In this document: one piece after another, positions 12,446 through 25,095 of the stretch
Numbering within the stretch: position 1 is the stretch's first letter
Layout of the letters: each line of letters starts with the position of its first letter
Virus record (IMG/VR): IMGVR_UViG_3300038441_001161
Coordinates: 1 to 27,482 of that record
Length of the DNA: 27,482 bases
Source of the DNA: a virus
Strand: one strand, 5' to 3'
Translations under genes and position numbers: made by a program
Notes under the pieces: model-generated
What the model was told of the DNA's origin: nothing
Databases searched by the model: none
The model's input: only the letters and a program-made list of their open reading frames with translations

Positions 12446-13389
12446 TGGCTGGCTCCAGCGGCAAGGGACATGATTTCCTCCGCACCATCGCGGCCTTCGG
12501 CCAGGCCAACGCTCCCGCCTCGTCGGCCAATAAGCCGATCAAGATGGGACGGGTGGACTACGACTACGCCCCATCGGACTTTCTCGGCGGCGTCATGCCG
12601 CGGGTCCTGTTCGACGGCGAGAAGACCGTGAGCCAGAAGCGGTACCAGGTGGTCGCCGGCTACTATCCCCAGCCCGGTCATCGCGTCTGCCTCATCCCGG
12701 TGGGCACCACCTACCTCATCATCGGGTCGGTGGACTCCGTCCAGCAGGATCCGGTGGTCAGCTACTTCACGGAGTCAGACACCTGGGAGAAGCCTGGCGG
12801 CTCTCGGATGATCCGGGTACAGGTTCAAGGTGGCGGAGGCGCTGGCGGCGGTTGTGTCGCTACCGCGTCAGGTGCGGTGTGTGCGGGTGGTGGAGGTGCC
12901 GGCGGAGCGTATGGCGAGTCCTGGCTGTCCGCCAACTCGGTCACCTCGTCGGTCGTTGTCACCGTCGGCTCGGCTGGTGTGGGGGGTACCGGTACGGGAG
13001 GCAGCGGCACCACCTCGTCGTTCGGTGCCTACGTATCGGCGAGCGGAGGTCCTGGCGGCGGCTCCACTGGGTCAGTGGGAACCAACGCTGGTATCTCGGG
13101 CGGCACGACCACCTCCCAGGTGATAGTGGCCGACCTCTCCATCAATGGCAGCGGAGGCGCTGGTGGCGCTGCGGCCTCGGGAGCGGTAAGCATGGGCGGC
13201 GCCGGCGGCTCGTCACACCTGGGGGGCGGGGGACGTGGAGTCGCCGCTGCCGGCGCACTCGTCACGGGGACCAATGCTGCGGGCTACGGCGGTGGGGGCG
13301 GTGGGGCTGCAAGCGGCACCAGCAACAACGCCTCCACCACCGGTGGTAACGGGTCCCCCGGCATCGTGATCGTAACCACGTTCTTCTAG
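12445..13389 (+). CDS. Glycine-rich tail-tip / receptor-binding protein
   Basis: A 314-residue protein with two parts. Residues about 30-105 look like an OB-fold domain of tail spikes (GRVDYDYAPSDFLGGVMPRV, RYQVVAGYYPQPGHRVCLIP, YLIIGSVDS). From about 110 a glycine-rich domain begins with the typical lead-in FTESDTWEKPGGSRMIRVQV. It continues as runs of GGGGAGG separated by short hydrophobic strands and ends in PGIVIVTTFF. Such domains form polyglycine-II sheets in phage receptor-binding proteins. The start overlaps the upstream stop (TGATG). The role as receptor-binding tip is inferred from this architecture. Confidence 0.87.
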   Translation: MAGSSGKGHDFLRTIAAFGQANAPASSANKPIKMGRVDYDYAPSDFLGGVMPRVLFDGEKTVSQKRYQVVAGYYPQPGHRVCLIPVGTTYLIIGSVDSVQQDPVVSYFTESDTWEKPGGSRMIRVQVQGGGGAGGGCVATASGAVCAGGGGAGGAYGESWLSANSVTSSVVVTVGSAGVGGTGTGGSGTTSSFGAYVSASGGPGGGSTGSVGTNAGISGGTTTSQVIVADLSINGSGGAGGAAASGAVSMGGAGGSSHLGGGGRGVAAAGALVTGTNAAGYGGGGGGAASGTSNNASTTGGNGSPGIVIVTTFF

Positions 13390-13398
13390 GAGACTCTC

Positions 13399-13665
13399 AT
13401 GCCCATCCGTAACGCGACCTCGGTCACCTATCGTCTCTCGGTTCACAACGAGAGCGGGGAGGTGTTCAATGACATGTTGACCTTCCCCCTCCACGGCAGC
13501 TCGGTCCAGTCGGCCCAGAAGATGGACGAGCGGATCCAGTCCATCATGGACGAGTACCTGGAGGACCTGAGGAACAACTACCCCGAGGAGCTTGGATTCG
13601 AGGTCAAAGCCTCTCGGGACTACGCGGCGCGAGCCATCATTGGAGATCCGTGGCCTGTTAACTAA
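13399..13665 (+). CDS. Hypothetical protein of the tail/lysis operon
   Basis: An 88-residue soluble protein. Its ATG is 9 bases after the previous stop, with GGAG as the ribosome site. The N-terminal half looks beta-stranded (VTYRLSVHNESGEVFNDML); the second half is helical (QKMDERIQSIMDEYLEDLRNNY). There are no cysteines and no signal peptide. Its position between the tail-tip gene and the holins suggests a structural or lysis-timing role. I do not recognise the family. Confidence 0.82.
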   Translation: MPIRNATSVTYRLSVHNESGEVFNDMLTFPLHGSSVQSAQKMDERIQSIMDEYLEDLRNNYPEELGFEVKASRDYAARAIIGDPWPVN

Positions 13666-13703
13666 CCCACACACTCCGGCAGTCTGCAAACACTGGAGGA
13701 ACC

Positions 13704-14003
13704 ATGTTCCAGGATTACATCATCGCTCAGGTCCGCACCTACGTCCCGGTTGGCGTCGGCGCTCTCCTCACCTGGCTTCTGTCTCTCGGGATCAACCTCG
13801 GCGCCGAGGCTCAGGTCGGCCTCATCGCCTTCGGGACCGCACTCATCACTGCCGCCTACTACACGGCGGCCAGTGCTCTCCAGCGGAAGTGGCCCATGAC
13901 CGGTCGCTTCCTGCTCGGATCGAAGCAGGCTCCGACCTACGTGGGAGGTGGTGCTGCCGACACTCAGATAGTGACCCCCGCCCGTGACGGAGATCACCTG
14001 TGA
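13704..14003 (+). CDS. Holin-like membrane protein
   Basis: A 99-residue protein with two predicted transmembrane helices: about residues 14-33 (VPVGVGALLTWLLSLGINLG) and 38-58 (VGLIAFGTALITAAYY). A basic and polar C-terminal tail follows. Length, topology and its place at the end of the rightward operon match actinophage holins that open the inner membrane for endolysin. The GGAGG ribosome site is clear. The stop overlaps the next start (GTGA). Confidence 0.75.
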   Translation: MFQDYIIAQVRTYVPVGVGALLTWLLSLGINLGAEAQVGLIAFGTALITAAYYTAASALQRKWPMTGRFLLGSKQAPTYVGGGAADTQIVTPARDGDHL

Positions 14004-14314
14004 GTGACATGGCACGAGAGGATGTGGAGAGACTCGTCCGCATCGAGACCAAGCTGGACGAAGCTCTCCAACGTCTGAATGAAGACCGTCGTGCTCACGA
14101 CGAGGACATGGCCCAGCTCCGCATTGACCACGAGAAAGACGTGGTTCAATTGAGGGCAGACCATGAGAAGGACGTGGACGAGATCCACGACGACGTGGAG
14201 AAGGTCGTTACCCGCGTGAGCACCCTGGAGAACTGGCGATACGCTATCGGCGCCGCCCTGTTGATGAGCTCCGCCGCAAGCATCGGCGCGGCCATCAACA
14301 TGGTGCCGAAGTAG
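14000..14314 (+). CDS. Coiled-coil membrane protein, second holin or XhlA-like
   Basis: A 104-residue protein starting with GTG at 14000 inside a GTGA overlap; an ATG at 14009 is an alternative start. A long charged coiled coil (about 8-72, with repeats such as RIDHEKDVVQLRADHEKDV) is followed by one membrane helix near the C-terminus (about 79-99, WRYAIGAALLMSSAASIGAAI). This layout resembles XhlA/haemolysin-type proteins that assist holins. It is last in the rightward unit and followed by a terminator. Confidence 0.75.
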   Translation: MSDMAREDVERLVRIETKLDEALQRLNEDRRAHDEDMAQLRIDHEKDVVQLRADHEKDVDEIHDDVEKVVTRVSTLENWRYAIGAALLMSSAASIGAAINMVPK

Positions 14315-14332
14315 CGAGGTACCACTCCACAG

Positions 14333-14387
14333 AGAAACCCCCTGCCTGGGGGAGCCCATGCTGTCGGGCACATGGCAGGGGGTTTCT
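14333..14387 (+). terminator. Terminator ending the rightward late operon
   Basis: AGAAACCCCCTGCC (14333-14346) pairs perfectly over 14 bp with GGCAGGGGGTTTCT (14374-14387). The 27-base loop contains its own GCCC...GGGC hairpin. TTTCTTGG ends it on the plus strand, and the mirror TTTCTCTG could also stop minus-strand transcripts. Confidence 0.8.
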
Positions 14388-14488
14388 TGGCGGACACACC
14401 GGTTCTCGCACCAAGAGCATTCGCCGATGAACGACGATACAGACGCTCTCACCTAGCTCCAAAACTCACAGAACAGCGCCTCTCGGCG

Positions 14489-14521
14489 ACTCACACGGGT
14501 ACGTGAGTGTCAGACACTCAC
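14489..14521. repeat. Overlapping palindromes in the convergent intergenic region
   Basis: GTGAGTGTC-A-GACACTCAC (14503-14521) is a perfect 9+1+9 palindrome. Its left arm can instead pair with ACTCAC at 14489-14494 across an 8-base loop, so two exclusive hairpins are possible. It lies between two facing terminators and has no adjacent gene start. The remainder of 14315-14634 holds no gene that I can support. Confidence 0.55.
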
Positions 14522-14583
14522 TCACCTAATTGATCTCTCCTAGCGAGCGCACAGAGCTTTTAACTCCTGCCGGCACAAATACC

Positions 14584-14621
14584 GAGAAACCCGCTCACTC
14601 ACGGGGAGTGGCGGGTTTCTC
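14584..14621 (-). terminator. Terminator of the first leftward gene unit
   Basis: GAGAAACCCGC-T-CACTC, loop ACGGG, GAGTG-GCGGGTTTCTC: 16 paired bases with one bulge. It sits 13 bases beyond the stop of the basic protein gene. On the minus strand it ends in GGGTTTCTC. It faces the rightward terminator at 14333. Confidence 0.75.
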
Positions 14622-14634
14622 TACTGGGTTACTG

Positions 14635-14826
14635 TCACGCGCTGGCGATCTCTCGCTTCCACATCATCTTCTCGACTCGGCGGATCTTGCGACGCTGGGT
14701 CTTGCTCTTGCCATTCCAGCCGGAGAGAATGTGGGAGTTGCTGATCACCCCGTTGGGCTTACCCGCTCGATTGTTCTTGGAGTGAAGCGTGGAGCGACCC
14801 GTGTGCGCGATGGCGATGCTTCCCAT
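14635..14826 (-). CDS. Small basic protein, function unknown
   Basis: A 63-residue protein starting at the ATG at 14826, which has GGGAG 6 bases upstream. A longer reading from 14880 would begin before the promoter at 14877-14905 and is unlikely. The C-terminal half is strongly basic (KSKTQRRKIRRVEKMMWKRE), suggesting nucleic-acid or ribosome contact. It is a single-gene unit with its own promoter and terminator. I do not recognise the family. Confidence 0.7.
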   Translation of the reverse strand: MGSIAIAHTGRSTLHSKNNRAGKPNGVISNSHILSGWNGKSKTQRRKIRRVEKMMWKREIASA

Positions 14827-14876
14827 TGTGACTCCCTGTTGAGTTGGGCGGTGCGTCGTTCTTGCTGACATGGATA

Positions 14877-14905
14877 ACATTACATGGGTCCCACTCTCCC
14901 GTCAA
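14877..14905 (-). promoter_or_regulatory. Leftward promoter for the small basic protein
   Basis: Read on the minus strand: TTGACG, a 17-base spacer and TAATGT. The expected start of transcription (about 14870) lies about 45 bases upstream of the ATG at 14826. It belongs to the TTGnnn/TAnTGT promoter set of this arm. Confidence 0.65.
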
Positions 14906-14926
14906 GGAGGTTCCTGAGATTCCACC

Positions 14927-14959
14927 GAGAAACCCCCGACCTCCTGGTCAGGGGCTCTC
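14927..14959 (-). terminator. Terminator after the 82-residue protein gene
   Basis: On the minus strand GAGAGCCCCTGACC pairs with GGTCGGGGGTTTCTC around AGGA, with wobbles and one mismatch, and ends in GGGTTTCTCGG. It lies 13 bases after the stop and just before the next promoter. Confidence 0.6.
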
Positions 14960-14971
14960 TGCTAGATCTGA

Positions 14972-15220
14972 TCAGTACATCGGCGGGGCGAGCCAGGCGA
15001 GCGCCTTCTCCTCCTGCTCCATCTCGTAAAAGTCCTCGGAGTGATAGCGGCGCCCGTTCTCGAAGTAGCGCTCTCCCGCCATCTCGGCCTCGTACTCGGC
15101 CTGAGCGGCACGCTCCTCGTACAGTTCCCGGGCGGTGAGGAGCTCCGGCTCCCAGAAGATCGGGAGGGCGAAGTTACGGATCTTGCGGCTGCGTCGCGTC
15201 GGGCGCTGGGTGTGGTTCAT
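14972..15220 (-). CDS. Hypothetical protein, 82 residues
   Basis: A soluble protein with a basic N-terminus (TQRPTRRSRKIRN) and an acidic helical C-terminal half rich in Glu and aromatic residues (ERAAQAEYEAEMAGERYF, YEMEQEEKALAW). The start ATG at 15220 has GAGGAG about 6 bases upstream. It has its own promoter (15262-15290) and terminator. I do not recognise the family. Confidence 0.72.
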   Translation of the reverse strand: MNHTQRPTRRSRKIRNFALPIFWEPELLTARELYEERAAQAEYEAEMAGERYFENGRRYHSEDFYEMEQEEKALAWLAPPMY

Positions 15221-15261
15221 GGCGGGCTCCTCGTTCTCGTTCGCTCGGGCTTACGAGGACT

Positions 15262-15290
15262 ACATTACGGTAGGTCGGTAGGAGTGTCAA
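15262..15290 (-). promoter_or_regulatory. Leftward promoter for the 82-residue protein
   Basis: On the minus strand: TTGACA, a 17-base spacer and TAATGT. It starts 9 bases after the terminator of the preceding gene and gives a leader of about 35 bases before the ATG at 15220. Confidence 0.7.
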
Positions 15291-15298
15291 GGCTGCCA

Positions 15299-15335
15299 AG
15301 AAGCCCCAGGGGCTCTCCACTTCCCTGGGGCTTCT
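15299..15335 (-). terminator. Terminator of the 221-residue protein gene
   Basis: AGAAGCCCCAGGG and CCCTGGGGCTTCT form a perfect 13-bp stem around an 11-base loop. On the minus strand it ends in CTTCTTGG. It lies about 35 bases past the stop at 15371. Confidence 0.78.
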
Positions 15336-15370
15336 CGGTTGGGCGCTGAGCAGGAGACTAGCTCCCTGGG

Positions 15371-16036
15371 CTAGAGCGTCTGCCAGCCCATGCCCCGGTA
15401 CATGGAGGTCACGTCCTTGAAGCCGTGGAGGCCCTCGTGGTCCATAACCCAGAACTCCTCGGTGTACTCGCCGTACCAGATGGCGACGTCCCAGCCCGCG
15501 GCGGTGAAGGTGTTCTGGATGCGCTGGGCCGTGCGGTGAGCCATCTTGTTCTTCGAGGGCGCGCCGGTCTGACGCTGGATCGCGGCGAGGGCGAAGGTGC
15601 CGGTGTGCCCCACACCCTCCGGGTCGTACTGCTCGGACTCCTCGTCGACCTTCTCCGCGGGCTCCTCCTCGGGAAGGGGCGCGGCGAGGATCGCCCGGCG
15701 CACCGGGAACGGACCCGCCCAGTTCTTCACGGACTGGCCGATGGGGTGCGGCCCCGGGTTCGGACCGGGGTGAGGCTTCGGCAACGGGCCCGGGTCGGGC
15801 TCCGTGGTGTCACTCGCCGGCACCGGGACGACCTCGTCGCCCTCGCCGTCGTCGGGCATGGGCCACGGCTTGTACTCCCCGCCGTTGCCGCCGCTGTTCA
15901 TGCGGGTGAGCGGCACGACGGGAACGACGGCGCGGAGGGCCATCGTCTCCTCGAAGCCGAAGTCCTCCCCCGTCTCGCCCTCGTCCAGTGCCACCGCTCG
16001 TCCTGCCTCTCTCGACCTGTCGTAATCCACGATCAT
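15371..16036 (-). CDS. Hypothetical protein with proline-rich linker, 221 residues
   Basis: The start ATG at 16036 (MIVDYDRSREAGR) has GAGGGAGATC upstream; a longer reading from 16099 would overlap the promoter and is rejected. The N-terminal 75 residues are acidic. A low-complexity Pro/Gly-rich linker (EPDPGPLPKPHPGPNPGP) spans about 77-100. A folded C-terminal domain of about 90 residues (TGTFALAAIQRQTGAPSK, then IWYGEYTEEFWVMDHEG) looks alpha/beta. The linker suggests a flexible tether between two domains. The function is unknown. Confidence 0.75.
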   Translation of the reverse strand: MIVDYDRSREAGRAVALDEGETGEDFGFEETMALRAVVPVVPLTRMNSGGNGGEYKPWPMPDDGEGDEVVPVPASDTTEPDPGPLPKPHPGPNPGPHPIGQSVKNWAGPFPVRRAILAAPLPEEEPAEKVDEESEQYDPEGVGHTGTFALAAIQRQTGAPSKNKMAHRTAQRIQNTFTAAGWDVAIWYGEYTEEFWVMDHEGLHGFKDVTSMYRGMGWQTL

Positions 16037-16069
16037 GGTCCGATCTCCCTCGGTTCGATGTCTGCTCTC

Positions 16070-16099
16070 ACGATAGTGCCCACAGGGCACGACGTGCAA
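16070..16099 (-). promoter_or_regulatory. Leftward promoter with a palindromic spacer
   Basis: On the minus strand: TTGCAC, an 18-base spacer and TATCGT. The spacer contains GTGCCC-TGT-GGGCAC (16076-16090), a perfect palindrome abutting the -10. It begins 4 bases after the endolysin stop, so the same sequence could act as terminator hairpin or operator. It serves the gene starting at 16036. Confidence 0.6.
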
Positions 16100-16102
16100 C
16101 CC

Positions 16103-17047
16103 CTAGGAGAACAGGAGCTGCCAGGTGAGCGGGCCGGGGTAGCCGTCAGCGTCGCCGGCGAGGCGCTTATCCGACCGCTGGAAGTCGCGGACGTTCAGGC
16201 GGTCGGCGTCGGACCACTTCGGCCCGGGGCCCACGTTGTAGTGCTTGCCGAACCCCTTCTTCTTGAGCTGGGTGCCGAGCTGGGTCACGTATTTGTTGTT
16301 GGCCCCAGCCCCGAAGTACTTCCGCCCAGGGAAGGCCGGCGGCTTCGGCTTGTTGGTCGCGGGCGGAGCAGCCGGACCGTTCGGCTTGTCCTTGTCTACG
16401 CCCAGCTTCCGCTTGGCGAGCTCCAGGAGCCATACGATCTTGATGTTCCCGGGGTCGCCGTGGTCGTTCTCCGGCACGTGCATGTGGCCGCAGACGCCGT
16501 AGAAGTTGTTCCACGCGGAGTGGCTCATCCGCTGACCCTGGCCGTTGCCGTACGACGAGGGGTAGGCCGGCCACTTGCTCGGTGCTTCGAGGCGGACGCC
16601 GTGCTCCTCGTGCAGCCAGGCCAGGAACTCCGCGAGGTCGTCCAGCGCCCACTCGGGAGCCTCGGGCCAGTAGATGAAGTCCTTGTCCTGGACGTGGCCC
16701 TCGCGGATCCACTTATCACGTGTCTTGGGGTCGCAGGTGCCCACCAGCTCCACCTGGACGACGTTGAGCGTGTTGGTCTCGACACCGCCGTACCGGTTCA
16801 CGAGGGCACGCGCCGAGCTGTCCACCCGGAAGTGCTGGTACGAGGCCAGCCGCTTGTTCTTGAAGTCGGGCAGCTTGGTGAAGTTCGGCGCCGAGGCACC
16901 ACCTCCGTACGTCGGCACGCTGCGACCCTCGGTGGTGTGGAGCGCACAGACGTTCACCTCCATCGCGGAAGCGGGGTAGTTGTCCTCGTACCAGTACGAG
17001 GTACGGTTGGCTCCCGGGTAGTACTGCGGGCCGGTTCGTGTGCTCAC
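16103..17047 (-). CDS. Endolysin: N-acetylmuramoyl-L-alanine amidase with C-terminal wall-binding domain
   Basis: The lysis enzyme, which cuts the bond between muramic acid and the stem peptide of peptidoglycan. The start is GTG at 17047, inside a GTGA overlap with the upstream gene and preceded by GGAGGAG; this gives 314 residues. Residues about 30-215 form a PGRP/amidase-2 domain, with putative zinc ligands His37 (ALHTTEG), His188 or His190 (CGHMHVPEN) and Asp195 or Asp198 (NDHGDPG). A Pro-rich linker spans about 218-240. Residues 241-314 are an actinophage peptidoglycan-binding domain (GRKYFGAGANN, VGPGPKWSDADR, DGYPGPLTWQLLF). It is the third gene of an operon with an exonuclease and an Acb2-like sponge. 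The holins lie on the other strand. Confidence 0.92.
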   Translation of the reverse strand: MSTRTGPQYYPGANRTSYWYEDNYPASAMEVNVCALHTTEGRSVPTYGGGASAPNFTKLPDFKNKRLASYQHFRVDSSARALVNRYGGVETNTLNVVQVELVGTCDPKTRDKWIREGHVQDKDFIYWPEAPEWALDDLAEFLAWLHEEHGVRLEAPSKWPAYPSSYGNGQGQRMSHSAWNNFYGVCGHMHVPENDHGDPGNIKIVWLLELAKRKLGVDKDKPNGPAAPPATNKPKPPAFPGRKYFGAGANNKYVTQLGTQLKKKGFGKHYNVGPGPKWSDADRLNVRDFQRSDKRLAGDADGYPGPLTWQLLFS

Positions 17048-17445
17048 CTGTTCTCCTCCGTCGTCGCGGCAGCAATCCACGCTGCCTGGATCTTGTCTCC
17101 GAGGCCCGACCAGTCGGGCATGTCCCGACCGTCGTGGGTCTTCCCGCCGGTCGCGTCGGCGTAAGCCGCGTACGCCCGTTGACCCTTCTGCCTCGCGGTG
17201 ATGACCTCCGCGTGACCGGCGGCCGGGTCCTCGGCTCGCGCCAGTGAGGCGTTCGCCCAGAACATGACCTCCTCCAGCTTGGTGATGGCCAGGCTGGCTT
17301 CTCGTCCCTCGGGCAGCATACGGCCGAGCTTCATGGCCGCACGCTCGCAGAGGTCCCGCACGTCGGCGTGCGCGTTCCTGCGTTCCTCGCTCATGGGCTT
17401 GTGGTAGCTGAACCTGTCGTGGATGTCGTCGGGGGTCATGCCCAC
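17044..17445 (-). CDS. Acb2/Tad1 hairpin-domain protein (probable anti-CBASS/anti-Thoeris nucleotide sponge)
   Basis: A 133-residue protein starting with GTG at 17445 in a TAGTG overlap, with GGAAGGAG 5 bases upstream. Residues 10-73 carry the pattern of the Acb2/Tad1 helical hairpin family: DRFSYHKP, VRDLCERAAMKLG, then PEGREASLAITKLEEVMFW and ANASLAR. Known members (phage Acb2, T4 Vs.4, Tad1) are oligomers that trap cyclic nucleotides or gcADPR and so blind CBASS or Thoeris immunity. Residues about 88-128 add a short domain (AYAAYADATGGK, MPDWSGLGDKIQAAW) often found at the ends of phage accessory proteins. The stop overlaps the endolysin start by 4 bases. The family call is strong; which nucleotide it binds is unknown. 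Confidence 0.82.
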   Translation of the reverse strand: MGMTPDDIHDRFSYHKPMSEERRNAHADVRDLCERAAMKLGRMLPEGREASLAITKLEEVMFWANASLARAEDPAAGHAEVITARQKGQRAYAAYADATGGKTHDGRDMPDWSGLGDKIQAAWIAAATTEENR

Positions 17446-18179
17446 TACTGCTCCTTCCGGCTGGCGACCAGCTCGGCCATGAACCGAGCCTTGGTCAGGT
17501 TGCCCTCAGCGTCCGCCAGGGCGTTGTGCTCCGTGCCGATCTGCTGGGGGATCTTCGGACTGCCCAGCCTCATGTGCTCCGACTTGAGGTCGTGGGTCAG
17601 CATGGGGACGTGAGCCGGCAGGTCGACCATGTTCTGCCACAGGCTCTGCACCAGGCAGACGTGGTCATAGGCGCCGTACCAGGCCCACATGTGGATGTTG
17701 TTGCGGTCCAGTTCCACACCCTCCGGGTGCGACTCCATCAGGAAGTCCGACACGAGACGGCGGATCTGTCCGATGGGGCGGACGTCCGGGTGGTCACGGT
17801 CCAGGCGCCCGTTCATGCAGTAGCACGAGTACTCCGCCGCCTTGCCCGTACCAGCTCCCGTACCGGGCACAGGCGCGCACCGGCACTTCTTGATGTACTC
17901 GCCCCCATACAGACCGTTTCCGCCGGCCCGCTTCTCGGGCAGGTCGGTCAGGGGCAGGTGCGGCCAGACGTTCTTCCGCATCCAGCCGTCGCTGTGGGTG
18001 AGGAGCTTCCGCTCGTCCAGCTCACGGTTCACGACGTACAACTTCCGCCCGTCGCCGGACACCATGCCGGCGGACACGAGTTCCAGCATGGTGCCGTCCG
18101 TCAGGAACTCCAGGTCGTACGTCACGAATGTGTGGGAGTACGGTTGAAGGAGCGTTGCCCTTATGGCGTCGTGGATCAT
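17445..18179 (-). CDS. Rv2179c-like 3'-5' exoribonuclease (DEDDh family) with Cys-rich insertion
   Basis: A 244-residue nuclease of the RNase T/DnaQ fold, predicted to degrade RNA 3' to 5' with two metal ions. Visible active-site residues: Asp22 and Glu24 (YDLEF), Asp172 (AWYGAYDHVCL), and His218 plus Asp223 (EHNALADAEGN). The close pattern to mycobacterial Rv2179c (YDxEFxxDG, WAWxGAYDHV) supports the family call. Unlike that short protein it carries an insertion at about 80-135 with CRC (99, 101) and CYC (119, 121), which may bind a metal. The ATG at 18179 is preceded by GTGAGGG. The stop overlaps the next start (TAGTG). It is the first gene of the operon with the sponge and endolysin. Confidence 0.85.
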   Translation of the reverse strand: MIHDAIRATLLQPYSHTFVTYDLEFLTDGTMLELVSAGMVSGDGRKLYVVNRELDERKLLTHSDGWMRKNVWPHLPLTDLPEKRAGGNGLYGGEYIKKCRCAPVPGTGAGTGKAAEYSCYCMNGRLDRDHPDVRPIGQIRRLVSDFLMESHPEGVELDRNNIHMWAWYGAYDHVCLVQSLWQNMVDLPAHVPMLTHDLKSEHMRLGSPKIPQQIGTEHNALADAEGNLTKARFMAELVASRKEQ

Positions 18180-18198
18180 TTTGCCCTCACTCTCCGTT

Positions 18199-18229
18199 AC
18201 AGTCTCGATGATTGGCCGGCGGCTGTCAA
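18199..18229 (-). promoter_or_regulatory. Probable leftward promoter of the exonuclease-sponge-endolysin operon
   Basis: A minus-strand TTGACA (18224-18229) sits inside the palindrome CGGCT-N4-AGCCG (18220-18233). The -10 is weak: GAGACT at spacing 17, or GACTGT at spacing 19, which fits the TGT ending of the other promoters here. It lies just after the stop of the preceding gene and about 20 bases above the exonuclease ATG. Confidence 0.42.
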
Positions 18230-18237
18230 GCCGTGGC

Positions 18238-18420
18238 TTACTTGTGCGACGAGGCGATGGGACGGCGGGGTGCGCGAGTCTTGTCCGCGAACATGACCGG
18301 CACCTCCACCTCCAGTCGACGGGGAGCCTTGCAGGTTCGCCAGTGGCCCTCGTCCTCGATGCCCAGCAGGATCCAGCCGATCAGGCCGGCTCCCAGCAGG
18401 ATCAATAAGGTCAGCATCAT
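18238..18420 (-). CDS. Small membrane protein, 60 residues
   Basis: The start is the ATG at 18420 (MMLTLLILLGAGLIGW) with GTGAGGAC 6-7 bases upstream; the longer frame to 18504 would overlap the previous gene deeply. One N-terminal membrane helix spans residues 2-20. An Arg/Lys-rich tail of about 40 residues (HWRTCKAPRRLEVEVPVMF) follows. It is probably anchored in the host membrane. No family is recognised. Confidence 0.68.
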   Translation of the reverse strand: MMLTLLILLGAGLIGWILLGIEDEGHWRTCKAPRRLEVEVPVMFADKTRAPRRPIASSHK

Positions 18421-18434
18421 GGGTGGGTCCTCAC

Positions 18435-18644
18435 TCACTTCTCGGTCTTCTGGTCCTGCACCACGCGGTCGCTGCCAGGGCCGGGCGTGGGGTTGTCGTC
18501 GCACGCCCAGCCTCCGGTCAGCCAGGCTCCGAGGAGGATGCCGGCGACGAACGCACCACCCGCGCTAAGGCGACCACTACCCCCGATGGGGGTGGCCTCG
18601 GCCACGGTGTACTTCACGTCAGTTACCTGTATCGGCTTCGCCAT
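18435..18644 (-). CDS. Small membrane protein, 69 residues
   Basis: Two adjacent ATGs (18647, 18644) follow GAGGGAGATC; the second gives the better spacing. A polar N-terminus (residues 1-27) precedes one Gly/Ala-rich membrane helix (about 28-46, GGAFVAGILLGAWLTGGW). A polar, probably exposed tail (DDNPTPGPGSDRVVQDQ) ends the protein. The next gene starts 14 bases after the stop, so the two are probably co-transcribed. Confidence 0.65.
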   Translation of the reverse strand: MAKPIQVTDVKYTVAEATPIGGSGRLSAGGAFVAGILLGAWLTGGWACDDNPTPGPGSDRVVQDQKTEK

Positions 18645-18692
18645 CATGATCTCCCTCGGTTCGGCTGTTGCCCTACAAGGACAGCTTAACGC

Positions 18693-18944
18693 TTACTTTG
18701 CGGGACGGCGAGCCATCTCCAGGTCGGGGTGCACCTTGGTGAGCATGTCCCGGACGGTGTCCCACAGGCGCTTGATTCCCCGGCAGACACCGACGACGGC
18801 GCCGACGAGGAGGATGAACCAGAACAGCAGGCCGCCCATGAAGAGGAGGATGGCCAGGAAGCCGGCGTGGTCTTCGAGCATGGAGTACTCCAGGGTGAGG
18901 TCGTGGACACCGGACATGACGGCGAGGATATCCAGGAGGTTCAT
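18693..18944 (-). CDS. Membrane protein, 83 residues
   Basis: The start is the ATG at 18944, because the promoter at 18987-19016 lies between it and the upstream in-frame ATG at 19016. A long hydrophobic region (about 25-54, FLAILLFMGGLLFWFILLVGA) forms one or two membrane helices. A basic amphipathic C-terminus (RGIKRLWDTVRDML, ARRPAK) follows. The ribosome site is weak (AAGG). The layout is compatible with a holin-like or envelope-modifying protein, but nothing decides this. Confidence 0.66.
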   Translation of the reverse strand: MNLLDILAVMSGVHDLTLEYSMLEDHAGFLAILLFMGGLLFWFILLVGAVVGVCRGIKRLWDTVRDMLTKVHPDLEMARRPAK

Positions 18945-18986
18945 TTGCCTTAGGTGGTGTGGTGCGGTGTCGAACAGGTTGCACCA

Positions 18987-19016
18987 ATCATATGACCCAC
19001 GGCACGCCCGATGCAA
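18987..19016 (-). promoter_or_regulatory. Leftward promoter for the membrane-protein genes
   Basis: On the minus strand: TTGCAT, an 18-base spacer and TATGAT. It lies 8 bases beyond the stop of the preceding gene and gives a leader of about 35 bases before the ATG at 18944. Confidence 0.6.
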
Positions 19017-19023
19017 CTCCGCC

Positions 19024-19275
19024 TCAGTCTTCGTCCTCCACGCTTTGGAACCTGTTACCTTCGAGCCGGTTGGCCGCGTCCAGTAGACCTAGCTTGGTGA
19101 TCCAGTCGGTGCCCTCGCTCTTGGTCATCCCGATGTTCACCGTGCCATCCTGCTCCAGAACCTTCATGATGACCACGACATCCGTCACCATGTCCCCCTC
19201 GTCCAGACACATGGTCACCCCGAGGGTGTCCAGGAGCTGGCCGATCTTTTGCTCCTTCGATGCACGCTCTGCCAT
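19024..19275 (-). CDS. Hypothetical protein, 83 residues
   Basis: A soluble alpha/beta protein: a helical start (MAERASKEQKIGQLLDTLG), a two- or three-strand beta centre (VTDVVVIMKVLEQDGTVNIGM), and a helix with an acidic end (FQSVEDED). The ATG at 19275 has GGAG 6 bases upstream and lies just past the terminator hairpin of the preceding operon. The function is unknown. Confidence 0.7.
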   Translation of the reverse strand: MAERASKEQKIGQLLDTLGVTMCLDEGDMVTDVVVIMKVLEQDGTVNIGMTKSEGTDWITKLGLLDAANRLEGNRFQSVEDED

Positions 19276-19290
19276 CGTTGCTCCAATCCA

Positions 19291-19330
19291 AGAGGGCTAC
19301 GGCTCATCATACCTCAAGCCGTAGCCCTCT
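19291..19330 (-). terminator. Terminator of the zinc-ribbon operon
   Basis: AGAGGGCTACGGCT and AGCCGTAGCCCTCT form a perfect 14-bp stem with a 12-base loop, ending on the minus strand in CCCTCTTGGATT. The loop contains TATGAT, identical to the -10 at 18987, but no good -35 is seen at the right distance. Confidence 0.78.
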
Positions 19331-19351
19331 ACCGAAGGGAGTTCCCGTGTG

Positions 19352-19729
19352 TCAGGTGGTCGGTTGCTCCTCGTCGGCTGCCTTGGCAGCAGCCTCGGCC
19401 CTGTCCTGGCACGTCGGGCACATGCCCGTCATATACCACTCGGACTCGTACAGTTGAGCCTCCTCCCTGGTGGAGAACTCATTGAACCGCGGAGTACCGT
19501 CGTCGTTGATCAGGGCCTGACCGCACCCGATGGGCGTGCCGATGCACCGCTTTTCTTCCACCGCTGCCGACACGGTGTCCCCGTCATCGGTCAGCAGTGA
19601 AGCCGCAAGGTCGCGGAAGGACCCGGTGAGTCGGATGGTCGTGCTACCCACCGGGAGTTCCACACCAGCCTCGGCGTCTGCGACGTTCGCCCTCCATCGA
19701 GGTCCCTCGTCCCTGACCTCACTGCTCAT
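19352..19729 (-). CDS. Zinc-ribbon protein of actinobacterial type
   Basis: A 125-residue protein starting at the ATG at 19729 (preceded by AGGAGG), which overlaps the previous stop as ATGA. The C-terminal half has four cysteines, C62, C69, C104 and C107 (RCIGTPIGCGQ, MCPTCQD). This signature is common in small actinobacterial and phage proteins and probably holds a zinc ion. The N-terminal 60 residues include a beta strand pair (GVELPVGSTTIRLTG). The end is Ala/Glu-rich. It is last in the operon. The function is unknown. Confidence 0.75.
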   Translation of the reverse strand: MSSEVRDEGPRWRANVADAEAGVELPVGSTTIRLTGSFRDLAASLLTDDGDTVSAAVEEKRCIGTPIGCGQALINDDGTPRFNEFSTREEAQLYESEWYMTGMCPTCQDRAEAAAKAADEEQPTT

Positions 19730-19872
19730 ACCCCAAGCCTCCTGATGTTGAAGGGGCTGTCCATGTCCAAGTTGGTGGCGATCATACATGCCTCAACTAG
19801 TGACATGGCAAGCCTCATCCAGGCCAGGAGGAACAGGCGAACGGTCACGAACCAGAGCAGACTGTTACCCAT
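19726..19872 (-). CDS. Small membrane protein, 48 residues
   Basis: The start is the ATG at 19872, overlapping the upstream gene end by 8 bases; the stop overlaps the next ATG (ATGA). This double coupling supports the short gene. One hydrophobic helix (about 4-30, LLWFVTVRLFLLAWMRLAMS) is followed by a short polar tail (DMDSPFNIRRLGV). The function is unknown. Confidence 0.6.
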   Translation of the reverse strand: MGNSLLWFVTVRLFLLAWMRLAMSLVEACMIATNLDMDSPFNIRRLGV

Positions 19873-20389
19873 CGGCGTCCGCCGGCCCGTCCTTCGGGTC
19901 CCACGTGGCGAGCGGGCTCCGGTCCCCGGTAGCCCAGACGTACGTGGGGCACGGCCAGTGATAGCCGCACTCGTCACAGTCGCCGGTCGTTCCCCCGCCC
20001 GCCAACTGATTCTTGCTGTGCGCTTCGGCGATGCGCGAGAGACGATCCTCAGCGGTGCTCAGGGGCGTGCTCGGCACGAGGTCGAACAGTGACGCGCTCT
20101 CGTGCAGACGCATCACCGCGAAGTCCGTACGCGAGCGCATGACGAGCCAGTCACCGGGCTCCACGACGACACCGCCGCCCATCATGTCCCGGAGAACCAC
20201 GTTGTCGTTCGAGTTGTCGAACCCGAGCAGACCGCGGCAGAAGATCATCACCTGGGTGAGAGATGTTCCCTCGCCCCACTGGATCGCCGGGTACTTCTTG
20301 CCGGCAAGCTCCACGGCCTTGATGTGGTTCTCCAGCGCGGAGACGGCCAGCATCGAGTAGGGGCCGGGCCCCTCCAGTCCCTCACTCAC
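19865..20389 (-). CDS. Hypothetical protein with C-terminal Cys cluster, 174 residues
   Basis: The GTG at 20389 is preferred because it sits in a short overlap with the upstream stop (GTGAGTGA). An ATG at 20443 would overlap that gene by 62 bases. The first 110 residues are alpha/beta (MLAVSALENHIKAVELAG, GGVVVEPGDWLVMRS). The C-terminal part holds GDCDECGYHWPCPT, a knuckle-like motif frequent in actinobacterial and phage proteins that probably binds zinc. It is second in the zinc-ribbon operon. Confidence 0.68.
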   Translation of the reverse strand: MSEGLEGPGPYSMLAVSALENHIKAVELAGKKYPAIQWGEGTSLTQVMIFCRGLLGFDNSNDNVVLRDMMGGGVVVEPGDWLVMRSRTDFAVMRLHESASLFDLVPSTPLSTAEDRLSRIAEAHSKNQLAGGGTTGDCDECGYHWPCPTYVWATGDRSPLATWDPKDGPADADG

Positions 20390-20975
20390 CTTCCACGTCC
20401 AAATCGTCGCTCTGACGCTGGGGCGGGATGGAACACCCGTCACCCAGCACCAGCAGGCACCCCGCCTTGTACGTGTGCGCCTCGGAGCACTTCCGCCCGC
20501 ACCTCTGCGGGACGGCGTGGGCCACGACCGCGGTGGCCATGTCCTCGCTTGTCTCCCGAATGGTTTCCTGGAGGTCGCTCACGGTCCGATCCTGGTCGAC
20601 CACCAGGGAGTCGAACAGCTCCGGGTCGTCGTGCCGGCAGATGAGACTCCCAGTCCCCGGATTCCAGATGAGCTGGCAGTCCAGCATCGGAGCGTGGGGG
20701 AGCGGCGTCTGGTCCTGCGGCGTGGTGATGGGGGCCACCTCGGCACCCACCATGAACTGTTCGACCAGGACCTCCACGCAGTCCTCGCACAGGTCCAGGA
20801 TCTCGACCGGCGGCGAGATGAGGGCTCCCCGGCGCTCCACCCTGAGGTGAGCCCATCCCCTCGTCTTGCTCAGGATCTCCATGGTCTTACCCATGAGGGC
20901 CATCGGGCTGTTGTTGGACAGCGGCTCGGGCATGGCCACTTCCGCCTTGCAACGATTACATCGGAGGAGTTTCAT
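20382..20975 (-). CDS. Cysteine-rich zinc-ribbon protein, 197 residues
   Basis: The N-terminal ribbon uses C6 and C9 (LRCNRCK) together with C63 and C66 (LCEDC), flanking a basic segment (RGWAHLRVERRG). A second Cys/His-rich part follows (MLDCQLIWNPGTGSLICRHDD, then QRCGRKCSEAHTYKAGC). The ATG at 20975 has GAGAGGA 9 bases upstream. It is first of a four-gene operon (with 20389, 19872 and 19729) closed by the hairpin at 19291. The ribbon fold suggests nucleic-acid or protein binding. The function is unknown. Confidence 0.75.
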   Translation of the reverse strand: MKLLRCNRCKAEVAMPEPLSNNSPMALMGKTMEILSKTRGWAHLRVERRGALISPPVEILDLCEDCVEVLVEQFMVGAEVAPITTPQDQTPLPHAPMLDCQLIWNPGTGSLICRHDDPELFDSLVVDQDRTVSDLQETIRETSEDMATAVVAHAVPQRCGRKCSEAHTYKAGCLLVLGDGCSIPPQRQSDDLDVEGE

Positions 20976-23860: not shown

Positions 23861-24295
23861 TCACGGCCGCCCGTAGCGCACGCTCTTGGTCCAGATCTTC
23901 TCCAGCCGCACCCTGGTGCCCGGCTTCGGGGCGTGCCAGATCTTCCCGGACCCGGCGTAGATGCCGACGTGGTAGATGCTGCGGGAGCCGCCGAAGAACA
24001 CGAGGTCCCCCGGCTTGCGGCTCTTGGCGCTGACCTTCTTGGACTTGTTGTACTGCTGCTGGGCCGTGCGCGGGAGCTTCTTGCCGGCCTTCTTGTAGGA
24101 GTACAGGGTCAGGCCCGAGCAGTCGAACCGCGAGGGACCGGTGCCTCCCCACTGGTAGCGGTCACCCTTCTGGGCCTTGGCCACCGAGAGGGCCTTCTGT
24201 CCGAGCGAGGGAGCGGCTTCGGCCGTGCCGGCAGACGTGCCGACGAGGAGAGCGGCGATGGTGCCCGCCACGGTTATACCGGCTCTGGTCTTCAT
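23861..24295 (-). CDS. Secreted NlpC/P60 cell-wall peptidase
   Basis: A 144-residue protein from the ATG at 24295 (AAGGA 5-6 bases upstream); an ATG at 24301 is too close to the ribosome site. A signal peptide (about 1-28, ending TAEAA) is followed directly by an NlpC/P60 domain. The catalytic residues are Cys59 (RFDCSGLTLY), His109 (YHVGIYAG) and His121 (IWHAPKPG). The family hydrolyses gamma-D-glutamyl bonds of peptidoglycan stem peptides. Because it is exported by its own signal, it probably acts on the wall from outside, in lysis support or envelope change. It is a single-gene unit with its own promoter. Confidence 0.9.
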   Translation of the reverse strand: MKTRAGITVAGTIAALLVGTSAGTAEAAPSLGQKALSVAKAQKGDRYQWGGTGPSRFDCSGLTLYSYKKAGKKLPRTAQQQYNKSKKVSAKSRKPGDLVFFGGSRSIYHVGIYAGSGKIWHAPKPGTRVRLEKIWTKSVRYGRP

Positions 24296-24341
24296 GTCCA
24301 TCCTTAGGTTGACCAGTGTCAGGCGGTTACCCGACTGTTAC

Positions 24342-24447: not shown

Positions 24448-25095
24448 TCAGAACGGGATCGCCTCGGGGACGCTCTCCACCCTCGTGACGTGGCCGTACT
24501 TCTGGCGGGCCTTCTTGGTGACGAGGTCCACGCCGTCAGCACTGCGCACGAGGATGGTGTGGTGCTCCCCGGTCGTGTCCGTGCAGGGCTCACCGTTGAC
24601 GGGGCAGGGACCGAACCTCTTGTTCCGCGGGTTGTGCTCCGGGTTCTTGTGGATCTTGACCGTCACCAGGTACAGGTGCTCACGCTCCGCGGGTGCGATC
24701 TCCATGTCCTGGAGAGCACGCTCCCATCCACCCTCCCGGGTGAACGTCACGCCGCGGTCGTCCAGGTACACACGAGCCGCTGGCTTGCGGTTCGTCACGA
24801 GGACGCGGGACCTGTCGTTCCAGAAGCTGTCCCCGAGCGAGGACGCCAGGATCGGGTCTGCGGCCCTCTCACGGTCCCAGTCGTCCTGAGTGACGGCATG
24901 AATGCCGTAACCCCCGAGGTACGTGCACACGGCGTCCAGGTCGGTGCGAGCGGTCAGCACAACAACCGCCTCCACCTCCATGATCTCGCGGATACCCTCG
25001 ACGGCTCCCGGCATGGGCGGGTCGTAGATGACCCCGCGCTGCCACCCTCGGGAGTAGCGGTGGATCACCCCGTCGAAGTCGATGGCCACAGTCAT
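24448..25095 (-). CDS. HAD-family phosphatase fused to an unknown C-terminal domain
   Basis: 215 residues in two parts. Residues 1-135 form a small HAD hydrolase: nucleophile motif AIDFDGVIH (Asp6, Asp8), motif II VVVLTARTD, Lys104 as motif III, and acidic motif IV VYLDDRG (Asp112, Asp113). The substrate is unknown; phage HADs often act on nucleotides or polynucleotide ends. Residues about 139-215 are a second, beta-rich domain (HLYLVTVKIHKNPEHNPRNK, FGPCPVNGEPC, HHTILVRSADG) that I do not recognise. The ATG overlaps the preceding stop (ATGA). Confidence 0.82.
   Translation of the reverse strand: MTVAIDFDGVIHRYSRGWQRGVIYDPPMPGAVEGIREIMEVEAVVVLTARTDLDAVCTYLGGYGIHAVTQDDWDRERAADPILASSLGDSFWNDRSRVLVTNRKPAARVYLDDRGVTFTREGGWERALQDMEIAPAEREHLYLVTVKIHKNPEHNPRNKRFGPCPVNGEPCTDTTGEHHTILVRSADGVDLVTKKARQKYGHVTRVESVPEAIPF

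What the first reader, a model, noticed from the sequence alone, without database searches (positions are those of the whole stretch)
16103..18179. Probable immune-signal sponge coupled to an exonuclease and the endolysin in one operon
The middle gene (17044-17445) carries the Acb2/Tad1 helical-hairpin pattern (DRFSYHKP ... GREASLAITKLEEVMFW ... ANASLAR). It overlaps the Rv2179c-like exonuclease by TAGTG and the endolysin by GTGA. Acb2-type proteins sequester cyclic nucleotides made by CBASS, or gcADPR in Thoeris. Placing such a sponge between a nuclease and the lysis enzyme suggests that immune evasion and lysis are expressed together, and the nuclease could be a second counter-defence factor.
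Basis: partly seen in the sequence, partly recalled or inferred. Interest (0 to 1): 0.72.

Follow-up and report, generated by a model that had tools for sequence, protein, structure and literature searches.

The report
Phage immune-signal sponge with extra domain
A soil phage related to Streptomyces phages carries a probable protein sponge that soaks up bacterial alarm molecules; such sponges are already known in phages, but here it is fused to a small unnamed domain and sits directly before the cell-wall-cutting enzyme.

Summary
The three genes are real and intact. The middle protein (133 aa) carries the Acb2/Tad1 hairpin: PF24729, E 2.7e-18, 66 bits, cut-off 27. A family profile finds solved 'Acb2 homolog 43' (E 4e-10) and Tad1 chains (best E 0.0026). 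AlphaFold gives Acb2's short helix plus helical hairpin; Tad1's N-terminal beta-domain is absent. Contacts are partly kept: Vs.4 K23 and T68 match R30 and T55; R79 is lost. A cyclic-oligonucleotide sponge is likely, ligand unknown. A relative, mycobacteriophage Xandras gp101 (42% identical), is already published as a predicted CBASS antagonist.

New here: residues ~84-129 are a separate small module, fused to the hairpin in 4 of the best 80 hairpin loci, all of the Zuko lineage; elsewhere mostly free-standing, with an endolysin as next gene in 9 of 29 loci. So the module probably explains the endolysin neighbour. The order nuclease-sponge-endolysin is conserved in that lineage. I found no evidence that lysis and immune evasion are functionally coupled, or that the RNase AS-like nuclease is counter-defence. 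Verdict: known kind, mildly unusual fusion.

The parts
17445..18179 (-). RNase AS / Rv2179c-like 3'-5' exonuclease (244 aa) with a CxC...CxC insert at residues 99-121
   Evidence: PF16473 27.8 bits (cut-off 27); phrog_2259 E 8.6e-35; NF033638 122 bits, below its cut-off of 200; PDB 4hec E 7e-23 and 4oke (Rv2179c) E 1.7e-22; motifs YDLEF, GAYDHV, HNALADA
17044..17445 (-). Sponge gene, 133 aa from GTG (131 aa if ATG at 17439 is the start)
   Evidence: ORF; PF24729 E 2.7e-18; phrog_1454 E 6.8e-24
17236..17433 (-). Acb2/Tad1 hairpin domain, residues 5-70
   Evidence: PF24729 match at residues 14-70; predicted helices 5-12, 20-43, 48-70
17059..17196 (-). C-terminal module, residues ~84-129, unnamed (phrog_20502-like)
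   Evidence: Predicted helices 84-99 and 115-129; phrog_20502 E 2.1e-6; homologues without the hairpin
16103..17047 (-). Endolysin: amidase-like N-terminal part plus peptidoglycan-binding C-terminal domain (314 aa)
   Evidence: phrog_1493 endolysin E 1.3e-29; NF038080 PG_bind_siph 103 bits, cut-off 55; Amidase_2 only 15.6 bits, cut-off 26

Best explanation
The middle gene encodes an Acb2-type sponge: a short N-terminal helix and a long helical hairpin that, by analogy with T4 Vs.4, should assemble into a hexamer and hold cyclic di- and/or trinucleotides made by host CBASS enzymes, so that effectors are not switched on. Shown here: homology, predicted protomer fold, purifying selection, conserved candidate contact residues (aromatic at 12/14, R30, R48, T55), and CBASS-type genes in part of the probable host genus. 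Inferred: hexamer, ligand binding, function in infection, and a Streptomyces-like host. Ligand: since the Vs.4 dinucleotide-contact arginine R79 is lost (A66) while the loop arginine R48 is kept and shared with Tad1 and Acb2 homolog 43, I lean slightly to cyclic trinucleotides; this is an inference, and the pocket role of that arginine is recalled. In this phage lineage the hairpin is fused to a small module that in other phages is often the gene before an endolysin; the fusion probably put the sponge at that locus. The upstream nuclease is probably an ordinary phage RNA/DNA-processing enzyme.
For: PF24729 66.4 bits against cut-off 27. Profile A1 against PDB: 9ptq 'Acb2 homolog 43' E 4e-10; five Tad1 sequences at E 0.0026-0.0031 and one at 0.11. 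AlphaFold with 35 sequences: helices 5-12, 20-43, 48-70; residues 21-70 at block pLDDT 85-92, residues 1-20 at 59-66; this is how the Acb2 protomer is described (PMC12043709, passages). Foldseek's three top rows are Vs.4/Acb2 7uq2, though E is only 1.2-3.4. Over 34 hairpin sequences: R30 in 34, T55 in 32, R48 in 32, aromatic at position 14 in 33. Vs.4 contacts Y8, H11, K23, R79, F82 and hexamer residues L29, A66, A73, A77 (PMC10097602, passages). K23 aligns with R30, A66 with A53, A77 with A64. Xandras gp101, published as CBASS antagonist (PMC11953737, passages), is 42% identical over 65 residues. Streptomyces genomes: SMODS CD-NTase in 22 of 150, SAVED in 12 of 150.
Against: No binding data. 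R79 of Vs.4 aligns with A66 (A in 33 of 34) and F82 with A69; Pseudomonas Acb2 (8h2j) also has A at the F82 place but keeps the arginine. Profile-profile alignment with the Vs.4 family is weak (hhalign probability 8.6%, E 0.0039) and its N-terminal part is unsure (it pairs F12, not Y14, with Y8). Fold matches do not stand above unrelated helical bundles (7uq2_D Z 6.1, rmsd 6.1, 68 aligned; unrelated 8j07_c2 Z 6.7). The actinophage anti-CBASS labels in print are themselves predictions. The hexamer was not modelled. Three Streptomyces genomes that carry a hairpin gene had no SMODS match (0 of 3), and none of the 4 of 150 genomes with a hairpin match is among the 22 with SMODS; this is weak, since such genes are probably prophage-borne, but it shows no link.
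Confidence: 0.7

Rival explanations
1. The hairpin is kept as an oligomerising or binding scaffold for something other than a CBASS signal, and the C-terminal module carries the main function, connected with the endolysin (for example timing, stability or localisation of the lysis enzyme).
For: Vs.4 R79 lost. The module evolves more slowly than the hairpin (window against L005: 88% against 72% identity; dN 0.065 against 0.204). The next downstream ORF of module genes is an endolysin (phrog_1493) in 9 of 29 loci, in L079 overlapping its start (2992/2989).
Against: The module is also found away from endolysins, e.g. Kela gp19 beside terminase; 20 of the 29 loci have no phrog_1493 match downstream. 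Of the best 80 hairpin loci 76 have no module, so the hairpin has a function of its own.
Confidence: 0.18
2. It is a Tad1-like sponge for glycocyclic ADP-ribose, acting against Thoeris.
For: Tad1 chains are found by the family profile at E 0.0026. An ADP-ribosylglycohydrolase family gene follows a hairpin gene in L031, and nicotinamide phosphoribosyl transferase and related genes lie upstream of one in Octobien14.
Against: [quoted passage not shown] Here only about 19 residues with one short helix precede the hairpin; that the pocket loops belong to the missing beta-domain is my inference.
Confidence: 0.07
3. One reading: nuclease, sponge and endolysin form one functional counter-defence/lysis unit.
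For: Gene order is conserved in window, L005, KimJongPhill (with near-identical L060, L061) and Zuko, at 52-81% protein identity for nuclease, hairpin and endolysin. A sponge stop overlapping an endolysin start (TGATG) recurs without the module in L025, L035, L037, the last two being alike. Three of 53 next downstream ORFs in other hairpin loci match holin phrog_443. The nuclease lies near a hairpin gene in L026 and L031.
Against: Of those 53 ORFs one matches endolysin phrog_880 in the part of the tally shown (25 of 53 families), plus L224 by tblastn. Eight named phages show other neighbours: ThyX and DNA polymerase, ClpP, portal, tRNA, terminase. Adjacency alone shows only probable co-transcription; no sigma-70-type promoter was found in 13000-20500, which is uninformative for actinophages.
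Confidence: 0.08

Closest known systems
Streptomyces phages Zuko gp36 and KimJongPhill gp38 (Zukovirus)
   Same: Same two-domain protein (53% and 51% identity) and same gene order
   Different: Annotated only as hypothetical protein; about 69% DNA identity over the three genes
Mycobacteriophage Xandras gp101 (published as cyclic oligonucleotide sequestering protein)
   Same: Hairpin domain, 42% identity over 65 residues without gaps
   Different: 65 aa, no C-terminal module; next to a ClpP-like protease, not an endolysin; 'hypothetical protein' in the record itself
T4 Vs.4 (Acb2) and Pseudomonas phage p26 (Acb2, 8h2j)
   Same: Short helix plus helical hairpin; for Vs.4, K23/R30, T68/T55, A66/A53, A77/A64 correspond
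   Different: No R79 or F82 equivalent here; only weak sequence similarity; no C-terminal module in Vs.4 (88 aa)
PDB 9ptq 'Acb2 homolog 43'
   Same: Shares LPEGRE and TKLEE.MF (phmmer E 4e-4; profile E 4e-10)
   Different: 76 aa; K at the A66 place; no module. I saw only the PDB molecule name and the aligned stretch
Tad1 (7uav, 8kbb and others)
   Same: RE......T.VEE..MW.N hairpin motif
   Different: Tad1 has an N-terminal beta-sheet, absent here

Membership tests
Acb2/Tad1 hairpin domain (PF24729) | Score over Pfam's curated cut-off across the domain | tested here: met
   66.4 bits, cut-off 27, profile positions 2-58 of 58
[quoted passage not shown]
   Predicted helices 5-12, 20-43, 48-70 (the short helix at low confidence); library matches are not specific for helical bundles
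Acb2 sponge | Vs.4 residues Y8, H11, K23 (pocket) and T68 (T68M lowers affinity, PMC12657230) | tested here: inconclusive
   K23 to R30 and T68 to T55 conserved; Y8 to F12 or Y14 depending on alignment; H11 position unclear
Acb2 sponge | Vs.4 pocket residues R79 and F82 | tested here: not met
   A66 and A69 at these places; F82 is also A in Pseudomonas Acb2. I therefore file the protein as an Acb2/Tad1-hairpin protein that works like Acb2, not as a proven Acb2
Acb2 sponge | Homohexamer | not testable with these tools
   Only monomers could be predicted; of four Vs.4 interface residues A66 and A77 match (A53, A64), A73 is V60, L29 is unplaced
Acb2 sponge | Binds and sequesters cyclic oligonucleotides, blocks CBASS | not testable with these tools
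   Needs experiment
Tad1 | N-terminal beta-sheet domain before the hairpin | tested here: not met
   Hairpin helix starts at residue 20, only a short helix before it
RNase AS / Rv2179c-like exonuclease | Conserved motifs of Rv2179c and family score | tested here: met
   YDLEF, GAYDHV, HNALADA; PF16473 27.8 against cut-off 27; below the NCBIfam equivalog cut-off, so poly(A) specificity is not implied
Phage endolysin | Lysis family match and cell-wall-binding domain | tested here: met
   phrog_1493 E 1.3e-29; PG_bind_siph over cut-off

The most novel reading that the evidence does not exclude
A two-headed counter-defence protein: the Acb2-type hairpin binds one immune signal while the fused module is a second binding or docking unit, and its free-standing relatives before endolysin genes in other phages are themselves small accessory proteins that link lysis with suppression of host suicide, for example preventing premature effector-driven death until lysis is ready.
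Probability: 0.08. Interest if true: 0.65.

Novelty: new variant of a known kind. Interest (0 to 1): 0.33.

Why it matters
The sponge belongs to a divergent Acb2-like group widespread in actinobacterial phages (324 phage records match, 215 of them Mycobacterium), in which one key pocket arginine is missing, so ligand choice can be tested directly. The fusion draws attention to a small unnamed phage module that is often found before endolysins and, in one lineage, is joined to a sponge. The neighbourhood itself gives no new system.

Tried and rejected
Functional lysis coupling: tested by neighbour ORFs of hairpin loci. First set: 5 of 56 neighbour ORFs (25 upstream, 31 downstream) matched endolysin phrog_1493; of these I looked at ten in detail and found L025, L035 and L037. 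Second set: 53 next downstream ORFs from the 76 non-Zuko loci; in the 25 of 53 families shown, one member matches endolysin phrog_880 and three match holin phrog_443. Dropped before the counts: some near-duplicate loci (A5), and loci without an ORF that met my rule (23 of 76 in the second set). The 80 loci are the best 80 of 249 confirmed relatives. Module loci: 29 of the 47 translated were examined, near-duplicates and the two Zuko-lineage ones left out. Fisher tests of 9 of 29 against 5 of 56 (p 0.014) and against 2 of 53 (p 0.001) are only indicative: the two comparison sets share contigs, the first holds upstream ORFs too, rows are not independent (L079, L088, L093 are alike; L056, L058, L067 are alike), and 2 of 53 is my own count. 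One locus (L229) had a long tblastn match that suggested a module; its frame stops after the hairpin and no module is there.

Nuclease as counter-defence: rejected for lack of recurrence. RyR relation of the C-terminal module was considered because RyR-domain phage proteins cleave cADPR signals (PMC13232231, part 1 of 6 and passages); Pfam scans of 8 members gave no RyR match, only weak matches to DUF7089 and chorismate synthase. The single-sequence AlphaFold run gave a poor model (mean pLDDT 68.4) and was set aside. No Rfam match, no tRNA. Six look-ups for primary papers on Acb2 and Tad1 found nothing held; the roles of PaMx33 Acb2 Y11, K26 and R67 are recalled.

Literature searches for novelty. 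In the titles and abstract openings listed, none names the fusion or this gene order; two searches found 0 papers.
Full report
What is there. The window is a virus record of 27,482 bases, 99.99% identical over 8,399 bases to part of the 36,674-base contig IMGVR_UViG_3300028809_000040, so the two are not independent. Its nearest named relatives over the three genes are Streptomyces phages KimJongPhill and Zuko, at about 69% DNA identity over 95-98% of the stretch.

The sponge domain. Residues 14-70 match PF24729 Acb2/Tad1 hairpin at 66.4 bits against a cut-off of 27. A profile of 24 relatives finds, among all PDB chains, 9ptq 'Acb2 homolog 43' (E 4e-10), five Tad1 sequences (E 0.0026-0.0031) and a sixth (E 0.11). 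tblastn finds 324 phage records, mostly Mycobacterium (215), Paenibacillus (42) and Gordonia (40); only 4 records (Zuko and KimJongPhill, each deposited twice) match over 80% or more of the protein. AlphaFold2 on a 35-sequence alignment gives one short helix (5-12, low confidence) and a long hairpin (20-43, 48-70), as reviews describe the Acb2 protomer (PMC12043709, passages; PMC10419184, passages). Foldseek ranks three T4 Vs.4 chains first, but with E 1.2 to 3.4; the second aligner gives 7uq2_D Z 6.1 (rmsd 6.1, 68 aligned), 8h2j_A Z 5.2 (rmsd 7.0, 69 aligned) and CmTad1 8kbc_A Z 5.0 (rmsd 3.0, 49 aligned), while unrelated helical proteins reach 6.7. So the fold comparison agrees with but does not prove membership; the sequence profile carries the claim.

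Contacts. In the Vs.4-cGAMP structure the bases stack on Y8 and F82, and Y8, H11, K23 and R79 make hydrogen bonds or salt bridges; L29, A66, A73 and A77 are at the hexamer interface (PMC10097602, passages). T68M lowers affinity (PMC12657230, passages). Profile alignment pairs R48-E72 of the window protein with D61-E85 of Vs.4 without gaps, though at low probability (8.6%): T68 is T55, A66 is A53, A73 is V60, A77 is A64, R79 is A66, F82 is A69. In a full-length alignment K23 pairs with R30, and Y8 with F12; by eye Y14 is an alternative. Over 34 distinct hairpin sequences R30, F12 and R11 are invariant, H15 and H26 occur in 33, R48 and T55 in 32, and A66 and A69 in 33. Thus one dinucleotide-contact arginine is gone throughout the group, while the loop arginine R48, shared with Tad1 and Acb2 homolog 43, is kept; it pairs with R67 of Pseudomonas Acb2 in a very weak alignment. 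I recall that R67 lies in the trinucleotide site; that paper is not held. This is the basis for a slight lean to trinucleotides.

Precedent. Cluster E mycobacteriophages Xandras and BigBubba were announced with 'cyclic nucleotide sequestering proteins (CBASS antagonist)', genes 101 and 102 (PMC11953737, passages), and Microbacterium phage Statler with a putative Acb2 (PMC13348362, passages). Xandras gp101 is 42% identical to the window protein over 65 residues.

The missed half. Residues ~84-129 are a separate module. Used alone as a query it finds Zuko, KimJongPhill and the small proteins Kela gp19 and Frankenweenie gp27 (54 and 55 aa), with JustBecause gp19. An 8-member alignment finds 50 loci in viral contigs; of the 47 of these translated, 33 encode proteins of 54-94 aa that hold little else (starts chosen by a script rule), others have it as N-terminal part of 172-174-aa proteins, and one at the end of an endonuclease VII-like protein. 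No Pfam family matches it significantly; all 8 members match phrog_20502, of unknown function. Among 29 module loci whose next downstream ORF was examined, 9 matched endolysin phrog_1493. Of the best 80 of 249 hairpin loci only 4, all of the Zuko lineage, have this module. The simplest account is that a hairpin gene fused to a pre-endolysin module gene.

The neighbourhood. Nuclease, sponge and endolysin keep their order in the window, L005, KimJongPhill with L060 and L061, and Zuko, at 62-63% (nuclease), 52-72% (hairpin) and 59-81% (endolysin) protein identity to the window. Against L005, dN and dS are 0.155 and 0.464 for the sponge, 0.291 and 0.829 for the nuclease, 0.126 and 0.480 for the endolysin, that is purifying selection on all three. 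Outside the lineage the sponge stop overlaps an endolysin start as TGATG in L025 and L035, and L037, which is like L035, has the same TGATG at the sponge stop; L224 has an endolysin as next ORF, L190 and L217 have endolysin-like stretches upstream, and three next downstream ORFs match a holin family. The nuclease lies near in L026 and directly upstream in L031. But most hairpin loci have other neighbours; in eight named phages these are ThyX and DNA polymerase, ClpP protease, portal and RNA ligase, tRNAs, terminase. Conservation of order in one lineage shows at most co-transcription.

The nuclease. It matches Rv2179c-like PF16473 just over the cut-off and PDB Rv2179c chains at E 1.7e-22, with the YDLEF, GAYDHV and HNALADA motifs kept. 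It carries an insert with CRC at 99 and CYC at 119, with CxC pairs also in KimJongPhill and Zuko and CRH for the second pair in L005. Relatives occur in 216 phage records, mostly as DnaQ-like or RNase H in the 60 rows shown. Its role in counter-defence is conjecture.

Host side. In 150 genomes of the genus of Streptomyces sp. NBC_01016 (locus L148), SMODS CD-NTases occur in 22 (the same search rings in 3 of 14 control genomes) and SAVED domains in 12 (0 of 14 controls); ten genomes are in both lists. So signals for such a sponge exist in the genus. Against any tight link, 0 of 3 Streptomyces genomes with a hairpin gene have SMODS, and the 4 of 150 genomes with a hairpin match are not among the 22. 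That the window's host is a Streptomyces is inferred from its relatives.

Judgement. A probable Acb2-like sponge in a family already recognised in actinobacterial phages, with a lineage-specific fused module and a changed pocket. The lysis link is best explained by the module's frequent place before endolysins, and the nuclease needs no special role.

Noticed in passing
L031:3445-5322: RNase AS-like exonuclease, hairpin sponge (ATG lies before the exonuclease end), then an ADP-ribosylglycohydrolase family gene: a possible counter-defence cluster.
   Followed up: partly
L143 (Gordonia phage Octobien14): Hairpin gene 100 lies downstream of ribose-phosphate pyrophosphokinase, nicotinamide phosphoribosyl transferase and nucleotidyltransferase genes, suggestive of an NAD salvage set nearby.
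   Followed up: no
L145 (Gordonia phage Schomber): Hairpin gene 23 is followed by RNA ligase and ADP-ribosyltransferase genes.
   Followed up: no
L025:4225, L035:4216, L037:3212: Hairpin-only sponge stop and following ATG form TGATG; in L025 and L035 this is the start called for the endolysin ORF.
   Followed up: partly
window 17445-18179, residues 99-121: Paired cysteines (CRC...CYC) in an insert of the exonuclease that falls between the two stretches aligned with Rv2179c; possibly a metal-binding knuckle.
   Followed up: partly
L079:2474-2992, L088, L093, L097, L098: Module fused to a second conserved domain; for L079 that domain is related to Gordonia phage gp19 proteins, one of which (Attis) is annotated lysin A.
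   Followed up: partly
L216:2501-2950: A hairpin protein with a different, 80-residue C-terminal extension.
   Followed up: no
window 23861-24301 and 24448-25095: A protein matching tail and tail-lysin families and a phosphoheptose isomerase-like protein, both on the minus strand like the sponge.
   Followed up: no
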